Source: Diplocarpon mali
Taxonomy: Eukaryota > Ascomycota > Leotiomycetes > Helotiales > Drepanopezizaceae
DNA length: 64,000 nucleotides
Direction of reading: 5' to 3'
Assembly (NCBI GenBank): GCA_024741835.1
Contig: JAENRP010000094.1
Span: forward strand, 1 to 64,000
In this document: piece after piece, positions 3,809 through 62,334 of the stretch
Layout: every line of letters starts with the position of its first letter
Numbering within the stretch: position 1 is the first letter of the stretch
Made by a program: the position numbers and the translations under genes
The notes under the pieces: generated by a model
The model's input: only the letters and a program-made list of their open reading frames with translations
The model's database searches: none
Told to the model about the DNA's origin: nothing

Positions 3809-4126
3809 TATGTCCTAAATAATAAAAGTAGTAGCCCCTATTACTATTAGTAAAGAATATAAAACAATATAGGTTAAGGCAATAGCATATCAATTACTAG
3901 CAAACCTTAAGTGCGAGAAAACTAATATATTAAAAAGGCCTAAACTAGGGCTATATCCTTATTAAAGGTAAAAAGAAAAAAAAGAAGAGTTTTTTTTTAT
4001 TTTTTTTTTTATATATATGCGCTTTTACCTACGGGCCGGGCCTAGGAGTTAGAAAACGAAGCTAGCAATACAAACAAACAAACTATAGAATTGTAAAAAC
4101 AATTAAAAATAGAACTAACCTAAGTA
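3809..4126 (-). other. Untranslated stretch between ORF3 stop and partial LTR
   Basis: AT-rich, with a long T/A homopolymer block at about 3980-4012 and one copy of the 23-bp GC motif at about 4027-4050. No coding signal is visible. A purine-rich tract next to the LTR (TAATAGGGGCTA on the minus strand) may be the old polypurine tract. Confidence 0.5.
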
Positions 4127-6770
4127 TCAGTTTTCCTTAGTTCTCTTTAAAGGACAGGGAGAACTATTACCAGATAATACTCTCTTCGCCGAACGACCAC
4201 TTCTTCTTATAGCATCGCTATTAGTGTCCGACGAGATAGGTCTCGGTATGGCGGGAGTCTTAGTGCTTCTTGCTAATGCTAGTATAGTATAACGACTTCG
4301 GCCGACAGGGAGGGAAACTTGTGTCGTAGCATTATCATTGTCTTCGTCATCATCCTTAGGGGAATTGTCGGTGATAGAGGAGAGGGAGGCGGGAGATTCT
4401 ACGGATACTACTTCCTTAGCCTTGCCCTTTGCCAGATCAAGTTGCGGGCCGGGCCTGGGAATTATATCAGGGGTTTTTGCACAAGGCTTCTTAGTGCTAT
4501 ACTTCTTGAGAAGTATCGCCTTATTAATCATATTATCAGCTTCGATATTATTATCTATATCTTTGGTCTTTATCTAAGACTTATCGCTATACAACTATAG
4601 CTCCAGTTATTGAACCAGCTTTTAGGTACTGGCAAAATCTTTGAAAAGTTCTTATTTGTACTTCTTTAGATATGCTATTAGCTAAGACACATCTTTTGCA
4701 AACAATTCCTTTATAGTCATTACCACTAATGGATTATTCTATAGTTGTCTTCCTACGAGAGCTTTTGACAATAGACCACCTTTCGTTATTCCGATCGTTG
4801 CTTAGAATCTTGCGGAAGATTCATAGACCACGCCCCATCTTAACAATTAAGGCTTCTTTATATTAATAGAGTCGATAAGGAAATCCTTTAAATCAGCTCT
4901 ATTCTCAAGTGTATTATTGCCAACAACTTCTGTATAGTTGTTACTAATAGCAAGAAAACCACCCTTCCTAGGCTTTCTATTAGAGTCCAGGTTAACGAAA
5001 GTGCCTTATCTTATAAATACAGAGAATGGAGTAGTCTTATTAGAAATGTACTCCTTTAGAATTATTCTATCCTTAGTATTCAATTCTTTCTATTAAGCTG
5101 CGCTCTATGCCAGATTTAGCGAGATCTATTAAGAGTTCTTAAGACAATAGGGTATAAGTATAGATGACTTATAGGACTTTTCCTATATAGCAAATTCTCT
5201 AGTCGACTATTTAGCAGTAGAGATTATATATTAGTTAATAGTTCTACTATTAAGGGAATTGACCCGCGAGCCAGGCCTAGGAGTCAATCTTATAAATCTT
5301 ATATTAGCGTCAATCTTAGTAGAAATAATTCGCAAATAGTAGTTAATGCTTACAAACTGTATAGGCTTAGGATACGCTACTAGCTTATATAAAGAATTAT
5401 AATAAGTTATTAAAGCATTAAGATATAGACTATAGTATATCCTTAAAGTCTGCTGTATCAAGCTATAAGTCATATTATAGAGGAAGGCAAAGGGGGGGCT
5501 TGGCTTCTTATCTAAGGTCCGGAAATGGTGTCGGTACATTTCTAGCTCCTCTTGTGCTAATGTCAAAAATGAATTCTTTCTACGATTACTATAACCATAC
5601 GTACGCATAGTGCTTAAAAAGGCATAGCTAAGCAACTTAGGCATATTTAAGAAGCCTTTGCTATAGAGCGATATTAAGATATTATTAGTTAGTATAGCGT
5701 TGTACTAGGCCGGGGTCCAGGCGATATTATAGAACAATTTAAGGGCTTCAGGTGCTACTCTGAACTTAAAGAAGCCTAACGACATATCCTTCTTGACTTA
5801 GTTCGCTATTCTATTGCCGGTGGCTATAATAGCATGATTTCCGGGATATAGTAAGAACAATTTCGGGTCTAGAGCTATATAAAACTTATAGATATTAGAT
5901 GATATATCTTTGTTATTAAGGCCGGTTGATGCCAACCTATAGTACTGCGCATATTATCTTTTATAAAGAGTATAAAATTTTTCGTCGTTAGTATCTTTAG
6001 AAATTCCTACTACAAATCTGCCTAGTTGTATCTTTATTTCTAGTGTTACTATAATCTTGAATCTGTTACTATATTATAGTATCATTTTGATATTAAGGGG
6101 AACTTGATAACATTCTATAGAGATAATTGCCGTGCTATCTTCTGGTTTTTCCTTAAGAATATAGTAGTCGCCTTTCATTCTCTTATAATCGATGAAGAAC
6201 TATATAATATTATCTATAGAAAATGCGTCTTATTATAGCTTTATAACTTGTTTAACGGCTCTTGCTATTACCTCTTATGCTAATAAAACATCTCCCCGGT
6301 TTTCCTTCTTTAAACGCTTTATTATAGACTTATAGAATTTCAAAATAAACTTTTGCAGATCTTTAGGAAAAGTCTATACGATATCGGATATATCCTTCTT
6401 AGTATTACTAAAAATTTCTAATACATTAGTGATAGGGCTATCCACTTCATCCGTTAGCTCATCTTCTGAGTTTATATCGTTATATGTTCTAACCTATAGG
6501 CCGGGCCTGCGAGCTAGTTTCTTTGCTACTAGTATATAAGGTATTCTAGGCATTTCTAAGAACGGCGATTCAAACTCATCTGAGTCTAATGAATAAGGGT
6601 CTTAACGGTTAGCAATTTGTGTTCTCGGTATCATAGGCACCTTATGCTCAGGGACCTCCTCTTCACGTGGTACTTCCACCCATAGGCCGGGCCTACGAGT
6701 CAAATTTTCCTTATTAGTTTATTCTGCCGGGGGTGGTAGCAGCTTCGGGGCGGCGGACACAACAAATTCA
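4127..6770 (-). pseudogene. ORF3 family protein, C-terminal ~880 codons
   Basis: Open minus-strand blocks (for example 5644-5231, beginning MPKLLSYAFLS, and 4531-4127, ending PLKRTKEN) join into one frame through TAG/TAA codons. It matches the protein read from 49557-52230: EELEMYRHHFRTL here against QEVEMYLYYFRLI there, and KFILKFYKSIIKRLKKEN against a similarly placed FFISICNRFKND. The N-terminal third is missing. The C-terminus is acidic (DDDEDND) then basic (RRSGRSAKR), which would suit a nuclear or nucleic-acid-binding tail. It carries several 23-bp motif copies, two reading RRPGLxV. I recognise no domain and infer no function. Confidence 0.6.
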
Positions 6771-7051
6771 TAGAAATTGACTCCTAGGCCGGACCTACAA
6801 GTGGATTCCTTTAAGGAAAGTGCACTCTCCGCCCTAATACAATTAAGCGAGGATAAGGAGAATAGATGGACTCCTAAGCTAGGATCGCAAGTGAAATTCG
6901 CGAAAATGACTCTTAAGCCAGGACTATAAGTGGAATGCAATATATCCTCGAAGATGACTCTTAAGCTAGGATTATAAGTGAATTTGGCAGAAATGACTCT
7001 TGGGCTAGGACTGCGAGTGGATTCTGCAGATTCGCCAATGACAACTCTTAG

Positions 7052-7297
7052 TATAAAACAGAGGGGAGACAACACAAGAATAGGCCTACGTGAAGACCAA
7101 AGACAAGAGGGAGGAAGCACCATAAGCGGGCTCTCCGAAGACAAGAACTAGGATAATTCACTAGTTGGAGGTAGAATAGGTAGTTGGCATTGCGCGCTGT
7201 CTCTAAGTACAATAGTAGTCCTATATATACCCCTTTCTTAGTCCTTATCTGACCATATGACCTATGTTACGAGATCCTCCACTTCCAGGTCTTTATA
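7052..7297 (-). repeat. 3' LTR of the gag-only element (minus sense)
   Basis: 246 bp, matching 9700-9945 with mostly transition differences. The shared block includes CATTGCGCGCTGTCTCTAAG. A related copy is 17597-17845. Confidence 0.9.
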
Positions 7298-7954
7298 TAT
7301 GCCCTAACTAACTTAAGTAGCGGCCCCTGCTACTATTAGCAAAGAATACAAGACTCTTGTAAGTCGAGAATACCAATCCCTATTTGCAAAAACAATAAGT
7401 GCAAGTAAGGTTAGTACCTAAAGTCGTAAAGGTAGGGAGAGGAGAGAGGGTTTTTNTTTAACTCGCGGGTCGGGCCCGCGAGTGGATTTCAAAGAAATAT
7501 ATAGAGGGAGAGGGGGAAGGGGAAGGGGGGAGGTGCGGTAGTAAACGAATAAAAATGATAAAAACTCCTTTTCCTCCTTTGGTAATGCGACTCCCGGTCT
7601 AGGACCGCGAGTTAAAAGCTCGAAGTTATTAAAGCTATTAAATCGCAATTTTAAAGAAAATTCGACGACAATTTCAAGTAATCCTATGCCCTAACCAACT
7701 TAAGAGGCGTCCTCGCCGAAGAAAATCCAAGCTTTATATAAAATTAGACTGATAATTTAGGAATTTCTTCGATACGGCCGTGTACGATTATCAAGCCTTT
7801 CTAAGGTGGCAACTCGCTTATTCAACCTAAGGGACGCTGGATTTAAGTATTTAGAGTTCGCGTGCTGGTTTTTGCCTTTTAAAGCCTATCGATTACCAAA
7901 CTAAGGGGCGCGATGAGTTTCCTAAAGAAGGCCTTCAATTGAGGATTCCAAACG
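7298..7954. other. Non-coding 3' part of the gag-only element
   Basis: No ORF is supported. It holds two copies of the 23-bp motif (7461-7483, which is a near-perfect hairpin, and about 7590-7612) and a purine-rich tract at ~7496-7535. The purine tract and flanks recur at 61514-61560. Confidence 0.55.
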
Positions 7955-9118
7955 TTAAATGCGGAGTTTAGAAAACTAGGCTTTGAGTTCCTTGATTTTT
8001 AAGGCAGATTTCACTCTTAGGCTAGGACCGCGAGTAAAAGGAATTACTACTGGATTTCTCTTTACCTCTTTAGTAATCTCTAGAGCCTTCGAATGTTCTT
8101 GCACTAGGCTTTTAAGATCTTTAATAAAGGAGGAGGTAGGCTCTTTCTCCTTTTCTATTGCCTTAATAGTCCTTTCGCTAAGGTCTGCTTTTAAGGCAAA
8201 GGTCGAGAAGTCTTCGAATTGAGCGTATATCATAGGATTACGCTTATCAATTTTAAAATGTTTGATAATCTTATTTTAAAGGCCAATAGGCAATCTAAGT
8301 AAGAATAAGCGTCCTCTTTCAACTTCACTAAGAATCTTCTAATCGATCAAGGTATTCGACACTCGAGTAAAGGTCTAATAGTAGTTTTTAAGTTCCTTAG
8401 GAGTGCGAGTAATAAGAACAAACTCCTTTAGAAAGGCCAGAGTATTGCGAATCTGCTATCTATCAAATTCCCGAAATTCAGCTTTAAGAGCCTTGACGAG
8501 TAGTTCTTAAGACTTGCGAAGCTTCCACTTAAGCAGAGATTTGATAATATCTTTACTAGTTTAGTCGTACTAGCAGGGAAGTCGATTGATCATCTTATTA
8601 TATCTAATGCCGAAATTATAATAAGTCTCCTTATATTATTTAAGGAAATTAGTAATATTAGCTCTAATAAAATAAGGAGCGCTAGAGGAATTAGGAAGGG
8701 GAAAATGATTAGTAATAGCTTTAAAGGCAGCTATTATCGCTTTATTCGTTTCGGTAGGAGGGGGGGAGCTAGGTCAAATATAGGGCTTAAGGTATTCTAA
8801 AGAGTTTTCAGAATTTGAGTCAATCTCAAAGTGACTAGGGCAAGCTTGAAAAGATTCGGGCAAAGGGTCGGTAGGAGGTTTAAAATTGATGTTTTTAAGT
8901 ATCAATATTGAAAAAGCAGGTACAGTTGTCGAAGGGGAAGATGAAGAACTCGAGTTGTGTAAAATCGTATTTTTATATTCCCACTCGCGGGCCCGGCCTA
9001 GGAGTGAAAATCCGGTTTCTATAGAAAGTTTATTTATACTTTGCCAAGACTTCTTTAGTAGGTACAAAGCAGCAAATAAGGGTACTGCAATCACTAGCAG
9101 TAAGTAAAGGTTTATCAA
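7955..9118 (-). pseudogene. Gypsy-type gag, nearly continuous
   Basis: Starting at an ATG at 9118 (MINLYLLLV), the frame can be followed to about 7955 through a few TAG codons. It begins with a hydrophobic stretch, then a Ser-rich linker, then the conserved gag core: PYFIRANITNFLK, TPKELKNYYQTFT, LPIGLQNKIIKHF and YAQFEDFSTFALKADLSERTI. One 23-bp motif is embedded as PFTRGPSLRVKSA at about 8012-8034. The same protein is coded at 18900-20400 (+, in G) and 61960-64000 (-, in H). Below ~7955 to the 3' LTR I see no coding sequence. Confidence 0.75.
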
Positions 9119-9699
9119 GTCAAAGACTAATTTCTAAGATAAAGTTTCTAAGAAAGATTCATCTTAGCTTCTAGGACAATTCCCATTGGTCCTTAGAATA
9201 AAGGGGTCTTCGGAGACGATTCCGGGGCAGTTTTCAGAGTTCTATTGAGCCGAGGCGGCTGAATTATCAGATTCGGATTTCTAAAGATTCTAAGGAGACA
9301 CTTCCAGTTGGAGTTTGCGCTTAGTATTACTTAAGTACTCGAAACTACTGCTATTTAAGACTGCTATTATAAGGTTCGCCAAACTTTTTATACTAGGAAG
9401 CCGAAAATTCCGAAAACCTCGGAGTTGAAGAGGAAAATAAGGGTTTTCGGAGCAGAGCCGAAAAGGGAAAATCTAAGGTTATTAATAGTAAAGAGTGGCA
9501 ATCGATAGTTCCAAATAACTAAGTGATTGCAAGGTCGATAATAGAGGAATGACAACCGACAGTTATAAATAACTAAATGATTGTAGATTTAAGAGAGGTT
9601 TTCAAAGGGTTAATCTCTTATCTGCGAACTAAGAGAATTAAGAGGAGAAGTCGTATAAAGATAAAATCTCAAAGGAATCGTCCCTACGTAGGTCACTAA

Positions 9700-9945
9700 T
9701 ATAAAATAGAGGGGAGACAATACAAGAATAGGCCTACGTAAAGACCAAAGATAAGAGGGAAGAAGCACTATAAGCGGGCTCTCTGAAGACAAGAACTAGG
9801 ACAATTCACTAGTTAGGGGTAGAATAGGTAGTTGGCATTGCGCGCTATCTCTAAGTATAATAGTAGTCCTATATATACCCCTTTCTTAGTCCTCATCTGA
9901 CCATATGACCTATGTCACGAGATCCTCCACTTCCAGGTCTCTATA
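9700..9945 (-). repeat. 5' LTR of the gag-only element (minus sense)
   Basis: 246 bp, partner of 7052-7297, followed on the right by the TSD TTAG and the resumption of the E1 motif array. Confidence 0.9.
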
Positions 9946-10200
9946 TTAGGCCAGGATTGCGAGTGAAATTCGCAGAAATGACTCTTAAGCTAGGACCGCG
10001 AGTGAACTTCGCGGATTCGTTAGAAATGACTCCTAGGCCGGGACCGCAAGTAAACTTCGCGGATTCGTTAGAAACGACTCTTAAGCCGGGACCGCGAGTA
10101 GATCTTGCTATTTCTAAGAAATCGACTCCTGATCTAGGACCGCGAGTAGATCTTGCGGTTTTATTAAAAACGACTCTTAAGCTAGGCTCGCGACTGGAAA

Positions 10201-13303: not shown

Positions 13304-13453
13304 ACGACTCCTAGGCCTACCCTGCGAGTTAGGTCATATAGTCTTATAAAGGAAAGTTTTTAGATCGACTCCTAGGCCTAGACCGCGAGTCAAGTCATAT
13401 AGTCTTATAAAGGAACGCTTTTAAGAAAATTGACTCTTAATCCTACCCTGCGA
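13304..13453 (+). repeat. Three motif copies in the E1 3' region
   Basis: Three 23-bp motif copies at about 13306-13329, 13368-13390 and 13431-13453, separated by a repeated segment containing GTCATATAGTCTTATAAAGG. E2 has the same arrangement at about 42073-42222. Confidence 0.8.
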
Positions 13454-13594
13454 GTAGAGTTTGGTAATTTTAATAAAGGTTATTATTAATTGATTGTTTT
13501 TAATTTAAAGAGATACTTAAGAGTTGGATTAGCGCAAAAGGATAATTATTATTTTCCTAACTATAAGTCAATTAGAGTAAGGTCTAAGTAGGGG

Positions 13595-13789
13595 TATTAA
13601 GATAGGTAATACAGCTATCACTCTAATATATTATCATATAACCCTACTGCTTAATTAGTAGGATATTAATATATATATAGCTATAAGGAAGAAAGGGGTA
13701 ACCTTCCTTCCTTAACTCTTACTAATATATCGACCATCGACCTTTAGAAGTTTCCCTTACCTACTGCGCCGACTTACTTAAGCTCAATA
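13595..13789 (+). repeat. 3' LTR of E1
   Basis: 195 bp, partner of 1522-1716, followed by the TSD TATGC. Confidence 0.92.
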
Positions 13790-16700: not shown

Positions 16701-17596
16701 TAAAGTACTAAAAACCCTTGTCCGCGAGGAGCCTCTCTAAGATGATATTAGTAATAAACTCCTTTATAATAGTAATATTATGCAGCATTATCCCTATAGG
16801 AGAGCTATTATGCTATAAAAGAGAGTCTGCTATATATCTATTACCTCTCCTAATAATTGGGAGTCTTAAGGTACCTGCTTTAATATATTACTATAAGTCG
16901 CTAAAAGGCTTAAAGGTGCCTGCGATAAGTGAATCCTTTGAATTAACGATATAAGTAGCCGCGCAATTATTAAAGAGCATACTTAAGGAGAGCAGGTAGC
17001 GTTCTAGCTTAAAGAGGTAGTAGACGTTAAACGATTCTTTAAAAGTATCGAAGGCAAAGGAATCCATTACTATAAAGACTAGTAAGTTCTCCCTTTTGCC
17101 TAAACCATCCTCCTTAAAGGCTAAAGCCTTTCCTTTGAATTTATTAATTGCTATTACCGCAATATTATTCTCCTTAAGCTATGCTTAGAGACCCTTAAAC
17201 TAGTCTCTCGCGTTTAATGCCTTTCGTATTCGTAGGACCTCCTCTCGCAAGGGGAGAACCTTCATATTTTCCTTGCGCCTATCCATAGTATATAATAGTT
17301 TCTAACAGTCTTAGGGCTTCTAATAGTAGTTGGTAGAGCCTTTATAAGGGTACTTAGGCCTGATCTCCCTTTTAGAGCTTATAGAGCGATTTTAAGAGCT
17401 GCTCGCTAGAGCCTGCGAAGGGGTTTCGGCATCTAGGAAAGACTCTCGAGTAGTAAAAACTGCTAGCCCTTTATTATTAATCGCTCTATTGGATTCAATG
17501 CCCGCCAGGGCGCGGCTTAGCTGCATTAGGTCGTGCTTGCATAGGGTTCCTATCTGCTTATTAGTGATTATTTCCTCCTTTAAGCGAGTCGCCTAA
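13795..17596 (-). pseudogene. Ty1/copia element X: gag end, protease, integrase and RT
   Basis: Read right to left on the minus strand. A gag-like piece is at ~17560-17000. A protease relic is near 16960 (YIVNSKDS for the D-S-G-A type site). GAG-pre-integrase lies around 16400-16500 (RASHLGAEAL, KCARGVKIKG). The integrase spans ~16380-15800, with LLIKDKYSG, KIRQDNNTLVISL, TPIYIYxPNRGVERV and SLWPEVVKAAIYLYN. After a linker, RT runs from ~14450 to 13795, with ATYFNIEVKQFDIINAFVN, ELDRALYRLKDS and FIAFYIDNIQVLY. It continues at 1521, because E1 split it at the TSD TATGC. Element H cuts its 5' part at 17596. Confidence 0.85.
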
Positions 17597-18006: not shown

Positions 18007-18029
18007 ACTCGCGGGTCGGGCCCGCGAGT
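18007..18029. repeat. 23-bp GC motif forming a near-perfect hairpin
   Basis: The sequence begins ACTCGCGGG and ends CCCGCGAGT, so the 9 bp arms are perfectly complementary around a 5 nt loop (TCGGG). An identical copy is at 7461-7483 in the sister element. This is the most symmetrical form of the motif in the window. Confidence 0.9.
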
Positions 18030-18899: not shown

Positions 18900-21800
18900 C
18901 TGTTTAGTACCTACTTAGAATCTCTTAGCAAACTCGGATTAAACTTTTAGTAGAATCCAGAATTCCACTCCTAGGCCTAGCCTATAAGTAGGAGGATAAA
19001 AAGACGTCTTTAAATAACTTAAGACTACTACTTACTTTTTCAATATCGATACTAGAAAATACTAAAAACAATATCAATTTTAAACTTTTTATTAACCCTT
19101 TATTTAAATTATTTCAAACTCGTCTTAATTACTTTAAGATTGACTCAGATTCTAAATGTTCTTTAAGCCCTTTTGAATTTCGAAGTACTCCTTCTAGCAA
19201 TCAATCTCGTAATATCAAAGCTTTCCCTTTGCCTTCTATAGATTCTATTAACCCAGACGGTTAGTATAAAACGATAATGGCCGCATTTAAGGCTATTACT
19301 AGTCACTTTCTCCTCTTTAGTTCCTCTGGCGCTCCTTACTTTATAGGCGCTAATATTACTGATTTCCTTAAGCAATATAAGGAAACTTATTACGATTTTA
19401 GTATTATATAAAAGGATATGATTTCTCGACTTCCTTACTACTATAACTATATAAGTAAAGATATTATCAAATCCCTCTTTAAATAGAAAACGCATAGTTT
19501 ATAGGAACTCCTTATTAAGGCTCTTAAGTCTGAATTCCGAGAATTTAATAAATAGTAGATTCGCAATACTCTGGCTTTTTTAAAGGAATTTATTTTAATC
19601 ACTCGAACTCCTAAGGAACTCAAGAACTACTATCGGACTTTTACTTATATATTAAACACTTTGATCAGCTAGAAAATACTTAGCGAAGTTGAAAGAGGCC
19701 GCCTTTTCTTGCTCGGATTACCTATTAGCCTTTGAAATAAGATTATTAAGCATTTTAGGATCGATAAGTAAGACCTTATAACCTTTACCTTATTTGAAGA
19801 ATTCTCGGCCTTTGCTTTAAAATCAGATCTTAATAAGAGAACCATTAATGCTATAGAGTAGGAAAAAGCCCCTACTCCCTCTTATACTAAAGACCTCAAA
19901 AGCCTGGTCTAAGAACACTCGAAGGCTCTGGAAGTCACAGAGGAGGCAAAGAAGAACCTAGTAATCATACCTTTCACTCGCAGGCCCGACCTAAGAGTAA
20001 GATCTAACCTTAGAATTAAAGAACTTAAAACCTAATTTACAAAACTCTAAATCTAAAGCTTAAAAACTAGGATTAATAATCTTTTATAAGAAAAACAATA
20101 TATTCCCTAATTTAGTAATAGGCAAAACTCGACTACTATGAACTAACCTAGTAGTTCCTATTACCAGACTCCTGCCTCTTATTATTCGGAATAACTAGCT
20201 AATATAAGAACTCAATAGTTGACTAAAAAAGGAGATAATAATCTTAACTAGCACTCTGCTAATATTAATGCTATAGGGTACTAAGGAAATGGCAATAGAA
20301 GACGACTAACCTGCAACTTTTGCAATAATAAAGAACCTAACTGCCCTCTATATGAGTATTGCAATAAATATCCTCTTTTCTATTGTTTTATTAACACTAG
20401 GATTATATATATTAATAAGTATAAGATGCTTTGCATTAGAGATCCTAGGCTAGAGGCTATCCCTATTAAAAAGCATTAGAATCGTTTATAGCTATAAACT
20501 GTTCGAATAATAATATATAGTACGAAGTAGGACGAGGATTTGGCCAAACGAAAGCGTATCGTCGAAATAAACTCTAAGGTCCTAACTTATATATATATAA
20601 GTCTAGCTAGCAATCTACTTAAGGGAGTGCTTATTGATCAAACTTCGAATTAGACTGCTACTAAAGTCAGAGGAATCTCTATTTTAAGGTAGGTTAATAA
20701 TAACGTATCTATTGATATTAATGCTACTTCTGTATTTAGAAACCCTTAGAATACTCGGCGCCCTTTTAGGTCTACCACTCCTCTAATACTAATAAAACCA
20801 GCTAAAGTCCAGAAATTAATGCGTATAACTCGGGAATCTTAGTATGGAATTCAAATGCTAAAAGATACCTAATAATCTAGAACCGCAGTAGATAAGGATA
20901 AAGCCGATATAGCAGACGAATTGATTAGAGATATAATAGACAAAGATGGCTTTGAGCTTAAAGATTAAGAAGTTGAAGTTATTACGCGGACCCTTGACCT
21001 TAAGCGAAAGAGATAGATATTAAAACGGGAAAAATTCGTCGACAAATACGCTAGTTCAATTGTAATAGAGAAAGCCATAGAGAATATCATAGCTTAGTAA
21101 ATTAACCTTACGTTTAAAGACCTATTTGGTTTAATTAAACGCTTTAATAAAATGCTAAGAAAGCATATCCTAATTGCTTTTAAAGATTTGAATAATAATA
21201 AGGAAATAGAAATTGTAATATAAAAGAACTCTAAGAAGCACTTAGCCTTAATTAAATGTCTTTAGATTGTAAAAAACAAAGGAACCTAAAGGTACTATAA
21301 TATTATAGTAATAGCCTTAATATCTTAGAATATCAATCGAAATTGTTTAGCAATTGTAATAAAAAGCCCTATTATTGTTTATTTAATAAAAGAATCAGTT
21401 AAAGTAAAGGCTTTAATCGATTATAGTTTAAAAGTTAATATAATAATTAGAAAAGTGGCAGAAATGGCTTAATTAACAATTGTTAGCGATCGACTCCTTA
21501 TTTATTCGACTGTTTCTAGATTAAAATACAATTTTAATAGATAGGTGAAAAATGTAAAGGTTAGAGTTAAAGGGATCGTTAATTATATTGACTTTCTAAT
21601 AATAGAGAATTCTTTAAATAACATTCTTTTAAGAATGCCTTTCATTTTAGAATCTTAGCTAATATTTAACTATCTTAAAGATAGTTTTATAAAAGCTAAT
21701 CTTTAGAATACGGATCGATCTTTAGAAGGACAAATGGTTATTATAAGAGATATAGCCGAATTCTAGAATAAGGTTTTAGGAAATGATTAGCTAGCATAAG

Positions 21801-22415
21801 GACTAGGCTTAATACTAGTAAAGGAAGGCACCTAGTAAGGAGTTATAGTAAAAGGAAGGTAAGTTTGCCGATTTTGAATAATAGCGATTTGACTTATAGT
21901 CTTAGACTAGGAGTCAAATCTGGAATTTTAAAAAATGGTACAATCGGCGTTTTATTAGATTAATAATTAAAAAAAAAGAAAAATAAGGCAAAGAAGAGGG
22001 TTCATTTTATAAATTTCGATAATTCACTAATCATTTTAAAAAACCTAAAAACCACTTATAAGCTGGACCTATAAGTGAAAAATAATAAAATTACTAATAA
22101 TATTTCTATTTACGCACTTTAAATTGACAACTTAGAAAATCTTTTATTTGTTTTTAAAAAGGAAAATTCGGACTGTTTTATAGGATTTGATAAAAAAGGA
22201 AAGAAGTAAAGAAGCATAGTACTAGCCAATATTCAAACTATATATAAAAGCAAGGCCGATAAAGTACGACCAGTAGATTAGGGAATCTCTAATGGCTCGA
22301 AGCCTAGAGGATTAGATAATTAGTTTAAATAAGATAAGAAGCTTCGACTTCTAAAGCCGGGTAGCAAATTCGACAAGTTTATTATAGGCAGATTTTCTAA
22401 TAAACCTATTGGATA
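18900..22415 (+). pseudogene. G gag and protease region (gypsy)
   Basis: The gag core is legible at ~19270-20040: PYFIGANITDFLKQYKETYY, TPKELKNYYRTFTY, FEEFSAFALKSDL and KDLKSLV, with the 23-bp motif as FTRRPDLRVRS. A Cys-rich segment near 20311 (TCNFCNN...C) is a relic of the nucleocapsid zinc knuckle. The aspartic protease is near 21410-21660: ALIDYSLKVNII for ALIDSGSEVNVI, then the later NNILLRMPF block. There are many TAG/TAA stops. Element A interrupts at 22421. Confidence 0.78.
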
Positions 22416-27477: not shown

Positions 27478-27600
27478 TTTTTTATACCTCTATTATAGGG
27501 TGATTTTTTTTTGCACTTCTATTAAGGGGTGATTTTTTTTACTCCCGGGCTGGGCCCGCGAGTTGTTTTTAATTTACTAAAGGGTGGATTTCCTACTCTA
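27474..27600 (+). repeat. Tandem GGGTGATTTTTTTT units and a motif copy after the stop codon of A
   Basis: Three imperfect ~31 bp units, each ending in GGGTGA followed by 8-9 T, begin at the stop codon. A 23-bp motif copy (27541-27563) follows directly. B (39719-39815) and C (44355-44456, reverse) have the same arrangement. Confidence 0.8.
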
Positions 27601-39721: not shown

Positions 39722-39993
39722 AGGGTGATTTTTTTTTGCACCCCTATTATAAGGTGATTTTTTTTTGCACTTCTATTAAGGGGTGATTTTTTTACTCCTG
39801 GGCCAGGCCCGCGAGTTGATTTTGACTTACTAAGGGGTGGATTTCCTACTTCAGAGTAGAGCGCGCTAGCGAACTCTACTCTATTTCCAATATCTGCAGG
39901 TTGATTTTTCATGCGAAACTGTAAAATACAACAAAAGTTATGACGTCATATGTGTTGCTGGCGAGTACCTTTAAAGGTCTCCCCAGAGGGGTG

Positions 39994-42072: not shown

Positions 42073-42222
42073 GACTCCTAGGCCCGCCTTATAAGTTAGG
42101 TCATATAGTCTTATAAAGGAAAGTTTTTAAATCGACTCCTAGGCCTAGACTGCAAGTCAAGTTATATAGTCTTATAAAGGAATGCTTTTAGGAAATTTGA
42201 CTCCTAGTCCTACCTTACGAGT
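42073..42222 (+). repeat. Three motif copies in the E2 3' region
   Basis: Same layout as 13304-13453 in E1, more mutated. Confidence 0.75.
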
Positions 42223-44197: not shown

Positions 44198-44453
44198 CAC
44201 CCCTCTAGGGAGACCTTTAAAGGTACTCGCCAGCAATACATATGATATTATAACTTTTGTTATAATCTATAGTTTCGTATGAAAAATCAACCTATAGATA
44301 TAGGAAATAGAGTAGAGTTTGCTAGCGCGAAATCCACCCCTTAGTAAGTCAAAATCAACTCGCGGGCCCGGCCTGGGAGTAAAAAAAATCACCCCTTAAT
44401 AGAAGTGCAAAAAAAAATCACCTTATAATAGAGGTATAAAAAAAAATCACCCC

Positions 44454-47400
44454 TTAATTAAGGTGCAGAACCTTTATATTTAACAATTTGATAAAGGCGG
44501 TATAGTTAGAGCTATTTAAGCTCTTAGTAAGGCCGTCGGCAGCGTTATCTTTGGTATTTGTATACTAGAGGTCCAAATGGCCTTTCCGAAGCTCTTGCCG
44601 AATATAATAGAACTTGATATTAATATGCTTTGTTCTCTAATGATATTCGGGGTTTTCAGTAAGATGAAGGGCTCTTTAGTTGTCGCAGATCATCTCGACT
44701 TTAATAGCATTGTCGCTGATATAGCCTATTTCCTTAAGTACCTAGCGTATTTAAGAGGCCTCTTATGCGAATTTGCATATAGCGATATACTCTGCTTCTA
44801 TAAATAAGAGAGCGATAATAGTCTATCGCTTAAAGGAGGTAGTAATTACGCTATTATTAAGGAAAAAGACGGCCTTAGAATAAGAGGCCCTAGTTCCTCT
44901 ATTACCTGCTTAGTCAGAATCGTAATAGCTATGCAATTTCTAAAGCTCTAGGTCAGTTGTTTTGCTTTTAAAGGTAGTATAATAGAATCGCATTCCTTGC
45001 AAGTATTATAAAACTCGTTTTAAAGCTACTATATATTATAGCAAAGGGTTAGTAAGGAATTTGCTAAGAATGAAGCAGTAGTATAGTATATCCTAACGCG
45101 TATAGTGCGCAAGGTACTATAGAGAACTATAGATCTCTTAATACAGCTTCACTTCTTATAGAGTGGCTTAGCCTTCAAATTTGACTATATGAACTTTATA
45201 GTTACTAGCAAAAGGAGTTGGTACGCTTTTGCAATTAGTTATATAAAAACGTTTAAGAACCTTATTAACGTAGGCATTTTAATAAAGTGAGATCGTTCTA
45301 TTTTATCGATCTTAGACTATACGTACTCTTAAGAAGTAGTTAGCCGGTTTGCTATTTATAATCTTAAAGAGGTTGCGAAGATCTCTTTTAAACTTGTCAT
45401 ATATATTACCTTTCTTAGCTACTATAAAGAAGTCGTCGATATAAGTGATAATAAGAATCCGAGAGGCGCGGTTGATATATATACAATTATTAGTATCAAG
45501 AGGTTGAAAATCGAGCTTTTGCAGCTTGGACCGTAGCTTTTCTTACTATAGTCGTAGAGATTACTTTAAGCTATATAAGGCCTTAAAAAGCTTAAGATAG
45601 TATTCTTAAGGTAAAAGAACAACCTTATCTTAAGTATATCTAAGAGGTAACTTGATATAGATATTAAAGTCAGCTTTTGAATTAAGGAAAGCTATCTCGA
45701 CGTCGAACTGATTTAGCTCAAAGTCGTATAGCGCTATAAGCGCAATTGCGATCTTTTAAACCGCAGATTTATATACTTTAGCAAAAGTCTAGTTGTAATC
45801 TCGACCTTATTATTATATATAGCCTTATATAACGAATCTGACCTTCTATTAGGAGATTTCCCTATTTTAGTCTTTTTTAGTTTTAAAGATAAGCCTTAAT
45901 CCGAGTACTCTATCGTCTTTAGAGAGTTTTAAGCGTTTCACTACTACTTATATATTCTTATAAGCAAGGGAATTATACTTAGAGTTGATCGCAGATTGCT
46001 ATTTGTTAGCATTAGCGCAAGAGAGGGCTTATTCGACTGTTTTCAAGTCATTTAAGTATAGAGAGTTAAGTAGGACTATATGGAAGGCGCCTAAATAGGC
46101 TTCCTTATTATTAAAGTTGTCAGCTTTGAATTTAAGAGCAGTAGAGTAAGTAGCTCTCTTCTCAAAAGGCTAAGGGTAAGCCTTATTCTTTAAACTAAGA
46201 GGTCTTCCTCTCTTTCTTAGAGTTAGAAGCTCAGCTTTATTAGCTTCTCTTAAATCGACTCGCGGTCCTGGCCTAAGAGTAAAATCATTATTATTATAAG
46301 AGTCAGAATTGACTCGCGGTCCCGGCCTAGGAGTGAAATCACTATTATTATAAGAGTCAGAATTGACTCGCGGTCCTGGCCTAGGAGTGAAATCACCTTT
46401 TAATTGCAGCTTTATAATTAGGCCGTCTTTATCAAATCGAACTTAAGATAATTAAATAATCTTTTTACCTATTTGCGATAGCATATAGATTTGATAAATA
46501 CTTCTACTATCAAATCCGATAAGAGTATCTACCTCTGCTCTTAGAGCGAGTTTGTTACTTTAAGTTCGCTTTTCTTTCTCGATTAGCATATAAACGCAAT
46601 AGCCTAGTACTTAAAGATGCTTGACTAAGGGAGTATAAGGCTTATTAGGCTTAATATCATCCTAAAAAACCTTATATAGAGTCTTGCTGCCGAGAATATC
46701 AAAGGCGGTAAGATTAGTGATATATATTATTAAAAGAAGGAGGTAAGGCTAGAGAAAGGAGGGGATATTTTAGTCAATTATAGCTATTTGCAACTTTTCT
46801 ATTAGTATATGAATTAATTGTTCTAATCTGCCGTCTTATTCTAGTATATATAGAGTAGATTCTTTTAAAATTATGCTAAGGTTTTCTATAAGTATTCGCA
46901 TTTATATAAGAGAGTACTCCTTGCCTCTATTAGTTCTCTAACGCTTAATTATACGATTATACTAAGTTTGTAAGAGGCTGATCATTTTCTTATTTGCCTT
47001 AAAGGCATTAGATTTATTTATATAAGTCTATCCCTATTTAGCTATTATAGCTAGGCAAGTGAAGATAGAGGCGTATTTATAGCCGTTTAGGCCAATTGGC
47101 TTTAGATGAACTACGTCGACGTATAGCTTATTAAGTGCCTTCGTAGGTCGAGGGCAAGCTAAACGTTTATTAATATATTAGAGAGGTCTGCCTTTCTTAT
47201 AAGGAGCGCAGATTCGCGTCTTCCTTGATTTTATTTCCTTAATCTATATATTAGTGATAGTAGATTGGGTCTTTTTAACCATTTATAGGCTAGCGTGGCT
47301 TAATCGATAGTACTATAGCTTAATATTAAGAGGTCCATTCTTAATAGCAGCTAAGAGAGCATATCTACTTATATAACCAAAGGAGTTAGTAGAAGGCTAT

Positions 47401-49169
47401 TTCTTATTAATATATATATTATCGTCGATAATGCAAATTTCCTTCTTATTAGATAGGAATAGCTTGCTATTTCGATAGAAGCCTTTTATTTTATTAAGTT
47501 TACCACTTGAGTATAGGCAGATAGGTGATTAAGGTATATAAAGAGTATTAATTAACTTAAGAATATATACCTTTCTATTGGATTTAAGTGTATTAACTTT
47601 GCAAGTGCTAACGCTAAGAGGTTGAATAGATCTATTAACTGTACTTAAGGAGGGTAGATTGTCTTAAGCAGTATAAGAAGTGAACTTAGAGAGATTATTA
47701 AAGATGTGCTTATTAGCACCTATATCGTATAGCTAACGATTCCTTAATTTTAATAAGAAGTAGGTAGAAGAACTGACTCCTAGGCCTAGCCCGCGAGTGG
47801 AAATTGGCCCTAGGGAGGAGTCGGAATTGACTCCTAGGCCTAGCTCGCAAGTGAGAATTGGCCCTAGGGTTAGTAATAGCATAGTATGCCTAAAGAGGTT
47901 ATTATCTGACTCTTCGTCTTCCTTCTAAGTCTTCCTTAAAGGCTTCTTGCCTTTTGGTGATAATAATGATAATAATGAGGACTTATCGTCCTTGCCTTTG
48001 AGGTGACGAAATACGTACTTCTTCCCTAAGTCCTTCTCCTAAGCCTCTCTTTTCGATTTATTAATTGCAAAGCAATCTTCTGCCTTATGGTATGGCTCTA
48101 GTTGCTTATAATAAGGACAGGGGGAGTTAGGGAAGGAGGTAGTATTCCTAGAGGTACTCTTCTTTAAGTCTTTAAAACCTCCCTTGTTTTCTGACTTCTT
48201 ATCAGAGGAATGCGGCTTGCTAGCCGATTTATTACTGTATAAAACGGTTCCGTTTATCTTTGAACTTTATAAGGCTCGAGCTTTGTTAGTAATATCTTTA
48301 ATAAGAGCTTTAAGCGTAATCTCTGATTTTCGTCTAGCTGCTATAGCTAAGCAAAGGTTAGAGCGTTATCGATCTGCTTAAATAGGCTATCTATTAGAAT
48401 AGCTAGTAATAAATATAATAAGGTACTAGTAAAAGGGAGGGGCAGAGTTGAGAGCTTCCAATTTAGTAATTAAAAGCCTAAAGGCGACGACATAAGCTTT
48501 GAGTGAATTAAAGTTGTTATATTTGATAGTAACGTAGGTCTGTATAACGTTATATTCAAGCACTATTCCAGATCCTTTATACTGTTTTTAAAGAGCTTCC
48601 TATATATCTAAGGCAGATTTATCGCCTTTTGTATAAGCTAGTAGGCCTGGTTTACAATTAAATATAATAGTAAGCTTTATCTAAGATTCCTTAGCTTCCT
48701 ATCTAACCCAATTGTCCCTTTCCTTATTTGTAATAGAACGGTCCTATAAGTCAACCTTAGGTAGAGCATATGTTTTAGCTTTTGTATAGAGATATATGAT
48801 TAAAGCGTTTAACTTTGCAAGGTTTAAAACCTTATTCCTTTATTAGCTATAGTCTTTTGCGCCTTTAAGCTTTTAAGACTTAGGGAGGCTAAGGGCAGCC
48901 GAAGATAACGATGACATCTTATTTGTATATTTGTATATAGAGTTATCGAAAGGAGAAGGTAGAGAAGGAGGAGGAGGAGGAGATGAACTATTGAATTCGA
49001 GTTTAGGGTACTATATATTAGTCCCTTTAAAAATAGGTGATTCAGGCAATAGAGTACTTTTAGCAATTAAGCTGGTAATCTCAGCTATTAGTCCTAATGA
49101 TTTAGCTATAGTAACGAATCTTGCGTAAGCTTAGATTATTGCATAGCGCTCTAGAAGGGGAGTAGCCAC
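44454..49169 (-). pseudogene. Copia polyprotein of element C
   Basis: Minus-strand frame collinear with B. The gag N-terminus has a Pro/Ser-rich tract (opposite ~48950-49020). Then come the protease LYDIGANKH region (~47730), integrase (~47000-46700), RT YIDDFFIVAKK (~45410-45445) and RNase H (~44790-44830). Decay is intermediate between A and B. It carries three motif copies in a ~53 bp tandem (46257-46395) where A and B carry two, and two more at ~47775 and ~47831. Confidence 0.85.
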
Positions 49170-49551: not shown

Positions 49552-52230
49552 AATAATAAAAAGGGGAATTAGTTATTTGTAATTAAGCTTACTTTGAAAT
49601 TCGCTTCTTAGCTTAAAGATATAATAAATGCTAAACTATATGATTTGACTCGCGATCCTAGACTAAGAGTCAGAATTGAGAATTCTAAAAGGGGATCTAA
49701 CCTAACCTTTGCTAAAATAACCTTAGAGACTATAGCTAAATAGACTGCTCGAACCTTTAGCGCTGCCTTATTAAACTTTTCAAAGTCTTTAAAGGACTCT
49801 CCTTTAGCTGGATAACCTATTTTAGTGCAACCTTAAAGAATAATAAATCGTTCGATAGCCACCTTAGCTAACTTGCAATTTAAAACCAAAGGATTATACG
49901 CCTATTTAAACTCCTTCTTTAATAACTTAAAAGAGCTAGTTCTTGACTTCTTTATATCTATATGCAACCGCTTTAAAAACGATAATATAAGGGAAGACCC
50001 TATTCCTACTGCTTTAGAAACAACTAAAAGAGCTATTAAATAGATTCAATAGCTTACCTTAAACGAATTTGCCCTTGCGGATATTATTTAATTCTTTAAT
50101 AATTATAGAAGTTAAGAACCTAGTCTTGCGGATGCTAAGTGAGACTATTTTATCTTGCAAAAAAGAGAACGCAAAGAGGAATCTATTAATTAAGATATTT
50201 GTAATTATAGCAATATGCTTCAATCGGTCATTCTTAACCTTAAGCTTAAAGAACGATATGATATTCAAGTGTCTTCTATAATAAAAACTCGCTTTCGATA
50301 GTATCTTCTTAGCGCAAGAATCGAAGGGAGAAGACTTTGCAACCTTTATATTCGCTCTCTTTCGGTTTACTATAGTCTTAATTATAAAGGATTTAATATT
50401 AATAAAACTATTGAATACCTCGAACTTCTTTATATAGTAGAAGATATCGATCTTTTTCTAATCCACTTTAATAATCAATTCTTCGTCTCTTTAAGGATAT
50501 GCAAATCCAACCTATTAATAATAGAGGCAACTCTAGGTACTATAAAATTTAGGGCTGATCTTAAAGCCTTAAAGGCATTAGAGCTAATTAAATAGAACAA
50601 TTCTTTCTTTTCGATATTATTAAATAATAAATAGCAAAAGGAAATAGAAGAAGAAGGGTCAATTGTGATGCTTAAACCCTTTAGATGCCACTTCCTAATC
50701 GACAATTTTACTACTAATAATAGTACTATTATAAGTACATTCCTCTCTATTATAAGATAAGAAGTAGAGATGTACCTTTATTACTTCCGCCTTATAAATA
50801 ACGCGACTTCTATACTTTCTTATTTTCTCTATAATATGATATTTAATCTTACTTAATAAGTCCTTCGGATGCATTATAGACTCTACCTCTTAGCTATAAT
50901 AGCGAAAAGTAGAGGAGCCTATTAGCTTATAGCTTACCTCGAACCTCTCTAATTGATTGGTCTTAGTCTTTACAATTAAGTAGTTTTAATAAAGAGAGAT
51001 ATAAGTGCTACTAATAAAGAAAATCCGATTATTACTTATAGTCTTAGCCTGCGAGTCAATTTTGCTAATAAGCAATTCTTAAATTATCAGATCCTATTAA
51101 TTAGACAAGGCCTTGCTTTAGGAAGCCTTAATAGGTAGATCGGCTCTTAGTCGAATGTGAAACTTACTCTATCTATAAAGAAGATAAGTCGATAGACTTC
51201 TTAAGCACTTAGTTCAAAATCTCAACTAGCTCGAATGACTATAAAAATAAAGCGAAAGGAGATCTTGCGACCTATTACTAATAATAGTAATCCAATTATA
51301 GTAATAACGAAATAGGGACAACTTTTTAAAATGCTTTCGGACAATTCTTATAGAACTAGTAGTTTTATAGCCTTTTATAATAACTATATAGCTATCTGCA
51401 ATAAGAATACCTTAGAAAATGAGACTCGAATCTCTAATCTTATCTTTTCAATCTCTACTCTAAAGTAACCTCTATTACCTTAATAGATTAACGTAAGTAG
51501 AACTATTGAACTTTTTAAAGTAGCTTTTCATCTTAAGAACTGCAGCAGCCTCTTTAAAGCCATTATTAGTCGACGCTCTTAAATAGACCCCTTGGTTATA
51601 ATTGAAGTACGGAAGTTATTTCTTCTTAATAAAGACGAATTAAAAATCCACTTTATAGAATATAATTAAAAACTCTTTAATACTCTTATTAATACCTAAA
51701 CGAATATTATAAATACTAAGTCGCTTCTTTATAGACTTAAGTCTTAGGGATAACGTAATGAAATAAATGCTATCTAAGAGCCTAATGCACTAATTAATAA
51801 AGATATTATTATAAGAAAATTCGGAAAAGAGATAAGCCGAGATACTAGTATAATGCTAGACCCTAATTTGGGAACCAATTCCCTATTTTTACCCTTAAGC
51901 TTAGAAACGCCAAGACTGACTTACAAGCCTGGCCCGCGAGTAAGGTTGGACTCGGCTAGCTTTAGCCTATAAGATAGTTCGGATGAACTTTAGCTACTAA
52001 ACCTAAGGGTATAAATAGAGGTTCCTTTAATAGAGGCACCTGAATTAGAGAAATCGCTAAGAGGTAAGAACTAACGCAAGAGAAGAAGACTCCGAAGTGA
52101 CGATAGAACCGATAATTAAGTCGAGCAATCTAGAGAATCTAGCCTATTACTCTTAGAGAAAACCATTTAGAGAACTTACAAATTCGAATTGAATCTTTTT
52201 TTTTAGATTATCTACTTTCTATATACTAGC

Positions 52231-60373: not shown

Positions 60374-60378
60374 ATAAT

Positions 60379-60712: not shown

Positions 60713-61444
60713 ATAAGCAAAAAGGCCACACCTAAGAAGAGCATAGCTGTCATCGCATCGGGCAGCAAGACCTTAATCGCCCCTAGCAACGAACTAATAT
60801 TAGAGGGAGGATTCTCTTAGGATAGCAAAACTTTAAGATTATTAGAAGATATTATAAGCACTTATAGAACGTTAGGTGAAATAGAATAGCAAGTATTCCT
60901 AAACTTATCTATAGAAGTGTTAAACTATAGAATTTCTACTATAGAAGAAGGATTTCTAGGATTTGATGACTTCCTTGAAAATGAATTGAAAACCAAAGGT
61001 ATTAATCGGGAGAAGTTTTTGCAAGAATATTAGGGTTATGCCAACTCTATAGACTTGTTTCGGAAGAATAGAGACAAAAAGGAGGAGTATACCAAAAGAC
61101 TATTGCAGTTTACCGGCAGCACCTATAGCATATTGTTCCAGACCCACTTTATAATAGACATCACCGCCAACAACGCCCTATAGGGGCTTGGCAAAATTTT
61201 TAAAACGTACCAACCTATAGCAAAAGCTATATAAGTATTGAATTACTTCACTATCTAAGAAGGCATAAAAAAGCTAAAAGGAAACAATGCGCGAAGCAGG
61301 AAGTTTATTAGGTTCTCAAGCACTATTGTGCACTCCGCCATTCAAACTATGAAAGATGACCCCTTATAGTACGACAACTTGGCGCTCCCTGACCAAACAG
61401 TTCTGGATACACTCGGACTATAGCAGTCATAATGCGGTCTACTG
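60713..61444 (+). pseudogene. ORF3b: N-terminal ~244 codons of an ORF3-family protein, truncated
   Basis: The frame starts at ATA 60713 (probably a mutated ATG) as xSKKATPKKS, a basic N-terminus, and runs with only a few TAG/TAA codons to the junction at 61444. Shared with ORF3a: GEIEQQ/GDIEQQ, FDDFLENELKTKGI/FNDFLTEELRLKGI, RKNRDKKEE/RIDQDKREE and HFIIDITANN/RFLINIDSNN. It is clearly diverged from ORF3a, so it is a paralogue, not a recent duplicate. It stops where it meets the last 69 bp of an LTR. The missing C-terminal part matches the segment inserted in E1 in size and break point. Function unknown. Confidence 0.65.
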
Positions 61445-61513
61445 GTGCTTCCTCCTTTTGTTTTTAGGTCTTCCCTTAGGCCTATTCTTGTGTTGTCTCC
61501 CCTCAGTTTTATA
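61445..61513 (+). repeat. 3' LTR remnant of G (last 69 bp)
   Basis: Matches 18223-18291, from GTGCTTCCTC to TTTTATA, and is followed by the TSD ATAT and H sequence. The first ~176 bp of the LTR are missing here. Confidence 0.88.
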
Positions 61514-61959
61514 ATATATAGAGGGAGAGGGGGAAGGGGGGGAGGTGCAGTAGTAAACGAATAAAAATGATAAAAAACTCCTTTTCCTCCTTTAGTAATA
61601 CGACTCCTAGGCCGGGCCCGCGAGTTAAAAGCTTGAAGTTATTAAAGCTATCAAATCGCAATTTCAAAGAAAATTCGAAGATAATTTTAAGTAATCCTAA
61701 GTATATATGCCCTAACCAACTTAAGAGGCGTCCTCGCTAAAGAAAATCTAGGCTTTGCATAAAATTCGACTAATAATCTAGGAATTTCTTTAATACGACT
61801 ATATACGATTATCAAGCCTTTTTAAGGTGGCAACTCGCTTATTTAACCTAAGGGAAGTCGGATTTAGGTACTTAGAGTTCGCATACTGGTTTTTACCTTC
61901 TAAAGCCTATCGATTTCCAAACTAAAGGGTATAATGAGTTTTCTAAAGAAGGCCTTCGA
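61514..61959. other. Non-coding 3' part of H
   Basis: Matches 7487-7955 of the sister element: a purine-rich tract, then a 23-bp motif copy at about 61609-61631 (ACTCCTAGG...GAGT). No coding signal. Confidence 0.6.
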
Positions 61960-62334
61960 TTGAGGTTTCCAAATGTTAAATGTAGAGTTTAGAAAACTGG
62001 GCTTCGAGTTCCTTGATTTTTAAGGCAGATTTCACTCTTAGGCCGGGACCGCAAGTAAAGGGAATTACCACTAGATTTCTCTTTGCCTCTTTAATAACCT
62101 TTAAAGCCTTCGAATGTTCTTGCACTAGGCTTTTAAGATCTTTAGTAAAGGAGGAGTTAGGCTCTTTTTCCTTTTCTATTGCCTCAATAGTCCTTTCGCT
62201 AAGGTCTGATTTTAAGGCAAAGGCTAAGAAGTCTTCGAATTGAGCGTATATTATAGGATCACGCTTATCAATCCTAAAATGCTTGATAATCTTGTTTCGA
62301 AGGCTAGTAGGCAATCCAAGTAAGAATAGGCGTC

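What the first reader, a model, noticed from the sequence alone, without database searches (positions are those of the whole stretch)
4027..62054. A dispersed 23-bp GC-rich near-palindrome in several unrelated retrotransposon families
A 23-nt motif starting ACTC, with core AGGCCGGGACCG (or its complement), and ending GAGT occurs roughly 60 times by eye. Clear copies start at 7461, 18007, 25584, 25632, 27541, 46314 and 61609. It is in copia E1/E2, copia A/B/C, gypsy G, the gag-only elements and ORF3, in coding and non-coding DNA. It is absent from copia D, copia X, the TRIM and ORF3b. Shared ancestry of the families cannot explain the pattern; a small mobile or recombinogenic sequence spreading between elements could. 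It stays GC-rich in strongly AT-shifted DNA. Bacterial palindromic elements such as the Rickettsia RPE behave similarly; I know of no fungal nuclear counterpart.
Basis: partly seen in the sequence, partly recalled or inferred. Interest (0 to 1): 0.88.

Follow-up and report, generated by a model that had tools for sequence, protein, structure and literature searches.

The report
Shared palindromic site in fungal retrotransposons
Several unrelated retrotransposon families in one fungus carry many near-identical copies of one short palindromic DNA site, both inside their genes and in the non-coding stretch before their 3' end, as if they depended on a common, still unknown binding factor.

Summary
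A profile finds 63 copies in the window (3 hits in 20 shuffles), and 1,112-2,223 sites match in the 49.4-Mb genome (reversed-pattern control 0). The unit is longer than reported: a 35-bp dyad, rc(H)-N-H with H = GGMCYRSGAGTNRAWTY. Hairpin pairing is not what is conserved. Inside ORFs it reads as T(R/P)GPGPRV or a close variant, and database proteins of Diplocarpon coronariae keep this peptide. Non-coding copies lie 138-216 bp before the 3' LTR in the motif-bearing lineages whose 3' LTR I placed.

Within families the sites are inherited: no empty site was recognised, only tandem copy-number change. Two sites are at homologous codons of ORF3 and ORF3b, which share 27.5% amino-acid identity, so some selection maintains them. 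GC retention needs no special cause. A free 'mobile palindrome' is not shown; integration targeting was tested and rejected for one LTR family. Best reading: a selected cis-acting site for a dimeric DNA-binding factor, copied between LTR retroelements. The factor is unidentified, and a peptide-level role in ORFs remains open.

The parts
4027..4049 (-). motif, non-coding, about 216 bp before the 3' LTR-like region of the ORF3 element
   Evidence: profile; LTR homology 3638-3920 / 7126-7408
4440..4462 (-). degenerate motif in ORF3 (peptide IPRPGPQL)
5262..5284 (-). motif in ORF3, homologous codons to L014:1501
6492..6514 (+). motif in ORF3 (gene on - strand); no counterpart seen in ORF3b
6678..6700 (+). 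motif in ORF3 (gene on - strand), homologous codons to L014:115
6780..7018 (+). array of 5 motifs (6780, 6870, 6909, 6957, 6996), fragment of copia E1
7049..9946 (-). gag-only LTR element (LTRs 7049-7298 and 9697-9946) nested inside a motif of copia E1
7461..7483 (+). near-perfect palindrome, 162 bp before the 3' LTR of the gag-only element
7590..7612 (+). motif in the gag-only element (peptide TRGPRPGV on - strand)
8013..8035 (+). motif at end of the conserved gag region (VVIPFTRGP...)
8983..9005 (-). motif upstream of the Met at which 4 of 6 database relatives of the gag begin
9942..10195 (+). array of 6 motifs (9942, 9981, 10029, 10077, 10125, 10173), copia E1
13307..13455 (+). 3 motifs, last one 139 bp before the 3' LTR of copia E1 (13595-13789)
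18007..18029 (+). near-perfect palindrome, 160 bp from an LTR (17594-17846)
18967..18989 (+). motif, relative of 8983
19976..19998 (-). motif, relative of 8013
21892..21914 (-). motif in a repeated family (40 copies scored)
22054..22076 (+). weak motif
24123..24193 (-). 2 motifs (24123, 24171), copia A, place of the copia B Gag-PR linker sites
   Evidence: domains by homology to copia B
25584..25654 (+). 2 motifs (25584, 25632), copia A, place of the copia B IN-RT linker sites
27541..27563 (+). motif, non-coding, copia A, 179 bp before the 3' LTR (27743)
29593..29615 (-). motif of the L047 family
32923..33392 (+). array of 10 motifs in a broken ORF segment of copia E2
36377..36453 (-). 2 motifs (36377, 36431), copia B, between Retrotran_gag_2 and a sub-threshold Pol_BBD match
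37841..37917 (+). 2 motifs (37841, 37895), copia B, between SH3_retrovirus and RVT_2
39794..39816 (+). motif, non-coding, copia B, 177 bp before the 3' LTR (39994)
42074..42222 (+). 3 motifs, last one 138 bp before the 3' LTR of copia E2 (42361)
44358..44380 (-). motif, non-coding, copia C, 166 bp before the 3' LTR (43960-44191)
46258..46388 (-). 3 motifs at 54-bp spacing, copia C, place of the IN-RT linker sites
47776..47852 (+). 2 motifs (47776, 47830), copia C, place of the Gag-PR linker sites
49648..49670 (-). motif of ORF3b (= L014:115)
51034..51056 (+). decayed motif of ORF3b (= L014:1501)
51919..51941 (+). motif of ORF3b (= L014:2386)
61603..61625 (+). motif, gag-only element copy (= 7590)
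62034..62056 (+). motif, gag-only element copy (= 8013)

Best explanation
It is a cis-acting nucleic-acid element of LTR retroelements: a 35-bp dyad, rc(H)-N-H with H = GGMCYRSGAGTNRAWTY. Most likely it is the recognition site of a dimeric, sequence-specific DNA-binding factor that helps these elements (expression, escape from silencing, or chromatin placement).

Shown: the dyad; half-sites found in pairs; several LTR lineages; non-coding copies 138-216 bp before the 3' LTR in the lineages that could be measured; further copies in stretches between protein domains; vertical inheritance within families; array growth and loss by tandem duplication; two sites kept at homologous ORF3/ORF3b codons through deep divergence.

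Inferred: that a protein binds it; that the binding benefits the element; and that copies moved between families during reverse transcription of co-packaged RNAs or by gene conversion. Inside ORFs its GGN/CCN codon structure makes it open in frame on both strands, which would let linkers tolerate it.
For: In the 36 flank clusters that I classed (array members counted apart) positions 1-4, 6-8, 11, 13, 16-21 and 23 show no transversions. At positions 0 to 27, 66 of 80 minority-class letters fall at 0, 9, 12, 15, 24 and 27; position 5 has 8, 14 has 3, 22 has 2, 10 has 1. The pairs 0/24 and 9/15 and the centre are dyad-symmetric; 5 varies while its partner 19 does not. Flank bases that were not in the profile follow the half-site: 38 of 39 pyrimidine two bases left of the 23-mer, 39 of 39 purine at +25 and at +26.

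Hairpin pairs are not kept: 5-19 in 6 of 39, 7-17 in 19 of 39, 9-15 in 23 of 39. Half-sites with a partner 299, orphans 12, which look like unrelated words by eye. The ten clusters that I class as non-coding (about five independent positions) show the same consensus as the 26 coding ones, apart from C at position 14 in three of them, so a peptide alone does not explain it. Distance to the 3' LTR: 179, 177, 166 (copia A, B, C), 139, 138 (copia E1, E2), 162, 160 (gag-only), about 216 (ORF3).

ORF3/ORF3b: third codon positions 32.5% identical, yet the motif is at homologous codons twice; first and second codon positions there are 27 of 32 identical against a 49% background (binomial 4e-5). Arrays: 1 or 2 units of 54 bp, 2 or 3 units of about 61 bp, 1 or 2 units of 45 bp.
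Against: No binding factor is identified. The ORF3/ORF3b conservation is equally well explained by selection on the peptide (wobble positions 6 of 16 identical, at background). As a whole the motif mutates as fast as its flanks within families, as expected of dead copies. The 3'-LTR-proximal position could simply be the main non-coding space that tolerates an insertion; the gag-only and ORF3 3' ends are themselves related, so there are about three independent lineages. In 11 gag-only copies the nearest detected motif inside the 3' LTR is 161-208 bp away in 7 but 284-622 bp in 4. Some stretches of LTR elements in the window have no copy. Position 5 breaks the symmetry.
Confidence: 0.4

Rival explanations
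1. Selfish palindromic insertion (like Rickettsia palindromic elements): a short palindrome once inserted, in either orientation, into tolerant places of several LTR elements and has been inherited since without function.
For: Both orientations occur inside one ORF (copia B 36377 - and 37841 +). Copia B sites lie between domains. The same sequence is in unrelated families. The palindrome is open and gives nearly the same peptide on both strands.
Against: No empty allele was recognised. Two sites are at homologous codons where ORF3/ORF3b are 27.5% identical, which a neutral insert would not be. The ends are less mutated than like words (with ascertainment caveats). No clear host-gene copy appeared in the sampled loci, which are a small part of the genome.
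Confidence: 0.27
2. The peptide T(R/P)GPGPRV is the selected unit (for example a polyprotein processing or docking motif), and GC-richness and palindromy are by-products of GGN/CCN/CGN codons.
For: The coding sites whose frame I read use one frame. D. coronariae ORF3 proteins keep the peptide or a variant (S for T, Q for R, L for V) at 4 of 4 sites in three proteins and 3 of 4 in P0004. Gag relatives keep VVIPFTRGP in 6 of 6. First and second codon positions are conserved between ORF3 and ORF3b while wobble positions are at background. Copia B sites lie at inter-domain boundaries.
Against: Ten clusters classed as non-coding have the same consensus. Wobble positions 3, 6, 18 and 21 show 0 transversions in 36 clusters, which amino acids do not require; the profile itself favours such copies. 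No peptide copy was found off the DNA motif in the window: 63 of 63 peptide matches, both strands counted, lie on motif sites.
Confidence: 0.2
3. Integration target: LTR elements insert into or beside the motif, which is kept as a safe landing site.
For: The gag-only element 7049-9946 sits inside a motif of copia E1 with an apparent TTAG duplication; two other insertions start 10-20 bp from a motif.
Against: Of 19 outer flanks of that LTR family (30 loci, the other 11 being inner LTR ends), 1 is inside a motif, 3 are 72-157 bp from one, and 15 are 780 bp or more away or have none in the locus; 17 of 19 flanks begin NTA (one search had read 22 of the 30 loci, 1 of 13).
Confidence: 0.04
4. RNA hairpin or dimerisation signal in the genomic RNA.
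For: The palindrome is near the 3' end of the RNA in several families; Ty1 RNA is described as dimerising through kissing loops (PMC5454406, title and start of abstract in a listing).
Against: Pairs 5-19, 7-17 and 9-15 are not kept across clusters.
Confidence: 0.06

Closest known systems
Rickettsia / Wolbachia palindromic elements (RPE, WPE; features recalled, papers seen in listings only)
   Same: Short palindromes in frame inside unrelated proteins as well as in non-coding DNA.
   Different: Eukaryotic nuclear LTR retroelements; 23-35 bp (RPEs are longer, recalled); no empty orthologues recognised; dyad rather than hairpin conserved.
PARCEL repeats (PMC2996958, passages seen)
   Same: Palindromic DNA that encodes tandemly repeated protein segments, in many ORFs of microbes.
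   Different: PARCELs are 75-nt tandem coding repeats with varying palindromes and an amphipathic protein domain; here one dyad, also in non-coding DNA.
VANC-binding motifs of Arabidopsis VANDAL elements (PMC5735166, passages seen)
   Same: A short sequence-specific site repeated within transposons, spreading by tandem duplication with copy-number change between element copies.
   Different: The VANC21 motif is 9 bp, mainly non-coding and enriched in one transposon family; here 35-bp dyads in several LTR lineages, also in ORFs; no cognate protein known.
Su(Hw) insulator array of Drosophila gypsy; internal enhancers of yeast Ty1/Ty2 (both recalled)
   Same: Multiple binding sites for a host DNA-binding protein carried inside an LTR retroelement.
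   Different: Those belong to one element family each; here one site is shared by unrelated families.

Membership tests
RPE-like palindromic insertion element (features recalled) | same palindrome in unrelated genes, in frame | tested here: met
RPE-like palindromic insertion element (features recalled) | orthologous or sibling copies lacking the insert (empty sites) | tested here: not met
   none recognised in the copies held or in 2 x 40 best genomic copies, which favour full-length ones
RPE-like palindromic insertion element (features recalled) | stable stem-loop | tested here: not met
   pairs 5-19, 7-17, 9-15 not kept
MITE | terminal inverted repeats with target-site duplication | tested here: inconclusive
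   the unit is itself an inverted repeat; flanks were printed and their inverse pairing counted, direct repeats were only looked at by eye
MITE | source transposon with the same single terminal repeats | tested here: not met
   no orphan half-site that looks related in about 310 kb held
VANC-type anti-silencing target | tandem arrays that vary between element copies | tested here: met
VANC-type anti-silencing target | mainly in non-coding parts of one TE family | tested here: not met
VANC-type anti-silencing target | cognate TE-encoded DNA-binding protein | not testable with these tools
   ORF3/ORF3b pieces have no Pfam match
PARCEL | 75-nt tandem coding repeat with amphipathic domain | tested here: not met
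   spacings 39-65 and 87-90 bp; tested pieces match no such domain in Pfam
LTR retroelement component | lies inside elements with LTRs and, where recognised, Gag/Pol domains | tested here: met
   not shown for every flank cluster

The most novel reading that the evidence does not exclude
One trans-acting, sequence-specific system serves copia-type, gypsy-type and non-autonomous (ORF3, gag-only) LTR retroelements of this fungus at once: a dimeric DNA-binding protein, possibly encoded by one of them (for example the ORF3 family), that recognises the 35-bp dyad and counters silencing or drives expression. The elements would have converged on a common cis code, including copies hidden in protein linkers.
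Probability: 0.18. Interest if true: 0.85.

Novelty: new variant of a known kind. Interest (0 to 1): 0.6.

Why it matters
A 35-bp site shared by unrelated retrotransposon families, between protein domains and before 3' LTRs, suggests that retroelements in one genome can share a cis code. The dyad gives a concrete bait for finding its protein. If bound, it would be a fungal counterpart, across families, of sequence-specific transposon regulation known from plants and flies; if not, it is a eukaryotic nuclear example of palindromic sequence embedded in genes.

Tried and rejected
Integration-target idea: raised by nested insertions, tested on one LTR family and rejected (1 of 19 outer flanks, which completes). 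RNA/DNA hairpin: pairing not kept. Source transposon with single half-sites: none seen. Replacement of one motif variant by another (conversion) at the 7590 context: by eye the flank tree shows two changes to G9, one of them also with C15; suggestive only, not used. RIP resistance as a special property: not needed, since transitions equal expectation. Presence elsewhere: 0 exact matches in viral contigs and prokaryote genomes. Homology of the copia E ORF segment to copia B by BLASTP was too weak to use (one search was out of frame). Paper searches listed, by title and start of abstract, none that I recognised as a fungal nuclear counterpart; only PMC2996958, PMC5735166, PMC7864672 and PMC11527701 were opened, as passages. 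I did not fold ORF3: an X-masked, shallow alignment would give a poor model.

Full report
WHAT IS THERE. The window lies in a 49.4-Mb, 676-contig genome. It is fungal: 59 Zn2Cys6 domain matches. The protein relatives found for two of its elements are all Diplocarpon coronariae proteins, at 50-80% identity although the window copies carry stops (4 hits, 6). Published D. coronariae assemblies are 50.3 Mb with 43.96% GC (PMC7864672, passages) and 51.2 Mb with about 21% LTR/Copia (PMC11527701, passages). So D. coronariae or a near relative is likely; that is inference. Neither paper's main text contains 'palindrom'.

OBSERVATION. Genome-wide, the consensus with up to 2 mismatches gives 1,112 forward and 1,111 reverse matches and 0 for the reversed control. 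Held sequence (window plus 89 partly overlapping loci, 312,571 letters) has 309 hits, 218 with distinct flanks, in 39 flank clusters. Array members form separate clusters, so I count about 18-21 distinct positions. Thirty of the 39 clusters have two or more members in the sample. Of the nine singletons, two (5262, 21892) were shown to be repeats genome-wide; the other seven were not checked, and L072:2474 is unassigned. I sampled 59 motif-centred loci, some overlapping (8 of 102 sites; 30; 15 new; 6). I recognised no host gene among them, but did not annotate each; this is not a genome-wide test.

ANATOMY. Position by position, the site is a dyad around a free centre base: rc(H)-N-H with H = GGMCYRSGAGTNRAWTY. 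The outer parts were not in the search profile, yet the second base left of the 23-mer is a pyrimidine in 38 of 39 clusters, and positions +25 and +26 are purines in 39 of 39. Half-sites occur in pairs (299; the 12 orphans look unrelated by eye). Base pairing between the halves is not kept at three positions (6, 19 and 23 of 39), so a hairpin is not the conserved feature. Of 80 minority-class (transversion) letters at positions 0 to 27 in 36 classified clusters, 66 fall at multiples of three from the centre; position 5 has 8, and base -2 outside has 11 more. These multiples of three are both dyad-symmetric and codon-wobble positions, because the 23-mer reads T(R/P)GPGPRV in the same phase on both strands. 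Positions 3, 6, 18 and 21 are wobble positions too but show no transversions in the 36 clusters (26 coding, 10 non-coding, by my own assignment; 3 left out). The non-coding clusters, about five independent positions, follow the same consensus, apart from C at position 14 in three of them.

WHERE IT SITS. In copia B the paired sites lie between the Gag domain (Retrotran_gag_2) and Pol_BBD (a sub-threshold match), and between SH3_retrovirus and RVT_2. A metagenome relative (P0001, the only hit) has no such repeat in its SH3-RT stretch by eye. Copia E2 has a ten-copy array in a broken ORF segment. ORF3, a protein family without Pfam match, has four sites; D. coronariae proteins keep the peptide or a variant at four sites (three in P0004, which lacks a longer stretch). 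The gag-only element has a site just after the conserved Gag region, present in all six database relatives. The 8983 site lies upstream of the Met at which four of the six (P0007-P0010) begin; P0006 begins further upstream and P0011 does not reach it. Non-coding sites lie 138-216 bp before the 3' LTR in copia A, B, C, copia E1, E2, two gag-only copies and, by LTR homology, the ORF3 element. In 11 gag-only copies the nearest detected motif is 161-208 bp from that LTR end in 7 and 284-622 bp in 4. It rests on about three independent lineages, and this is also the main non-coding space of such elements.

HISTORY. Within families the site is inherited. Flank-to-flank distance is 23 bp apart from what I read as array-size changes, the variable poly-T next to two contexts, and alignment shifts. 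The 40 best genomic copies of the 5262 and 21892 contexts, the window's own included, span the site at full length (only 40 of 230 and 264 candidates were scored, which favours full-length copies). Arrays differ: one or two 54-bp units (L089 against copia A and B), two or three units (L084 against L085), one or two 45-bp units (L087 against L060). Between ORF3 and ORF3b (27.5% amino-acid and 32.5% third-position identity over 874 codons) two sites are at homologous codons; 4440 and L014:2386 do not line up and are only possibly homologous; 6492 is only in ORF3. In the two shared sites first and second codon positions are 27 of 32 identical and wobble positions 6 of 16. Most of these differences are also allowed by the dyad consensus, so this comparison cannot separate peptide from DNA selection, but it does show maintenance.

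DECAY. Transitions in the motif equal the expectation from flank rates (229 against 229.1 in 11 contexts; 122 against 110.6 in 49 flank-chosen sites of three contexts). The persistence of GC therefore needs no protection. The ACTC end is an exception (0 against 14.7), letters 21-23 less so (3 against 11.4), letter 20 not (13 against 10.5). Motif ends mutate at 59 of 1,364 letters against 311 of 3,196 for the same words elsewhere (partly motif-ascertained, overlapping contexts).

INTERPRETATION. Retention, pairing of half-sites, shared non-coding positions and fixed wobble letters favour a selected nucleic-acid element, most simply a dimer-binding site in the DNA. Linker copies add an in-frame peptide that may itself be selected. 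How copies passed between families is inferred: the families whose ends I mapped are LTR elements, so exchange during reverse transcription or gene conversion is plausible. Free mobility is not shown, and insertion targeting was rejected for one LTR family (1 of 19 flanks). The closest functional precedent is the VANC/VANDAL system (PMC5735166, passages); the closest formal likeness is RPE (recalled) and PARCEL repeats (PMC2996958, passages). Membership in each fails at least one tested feature.

Noticed in passing
7049-9946 within copia E1 (intact site 33187 in copia E2): A gag-only LTR element has inserted inside one motif, leaving an apparent TTAG duplication; 17 of 19 outer flanks of its LTR family begin NTA.
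   Followed up: yes
4000-6769 (-) and L014:1-2604: ORF3/ORF3b: an LTR-associated family whose relatives in D. coronariae are proteins of 1,071-1,157 aa with no Pfam match; 40 genomic copies of one part were scored of 230 candidates.
   Followed up: partly
27454-27540, 39708-39793, 44381-44458: A 29-bp tandem repeat with a T run directly precedes the 3' non-coding motif in copia A, B and C.
   Followed up: no
L042, L043, L081 next to the 7461-type motif: Runs of N (assembly gaps) lie at or next to the T run beside this motif in several copies.
   Followed up: no
18049: A second, diverged LTR element starts about 20 bp from the 18007 motif in inverted orientation.
   Followed up: partly
61603-61625: This copy differs from most siblings of its context by transversions at positions 9 and 15 and equals a variant found in other families; possible conversion.
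   Followed up: partly
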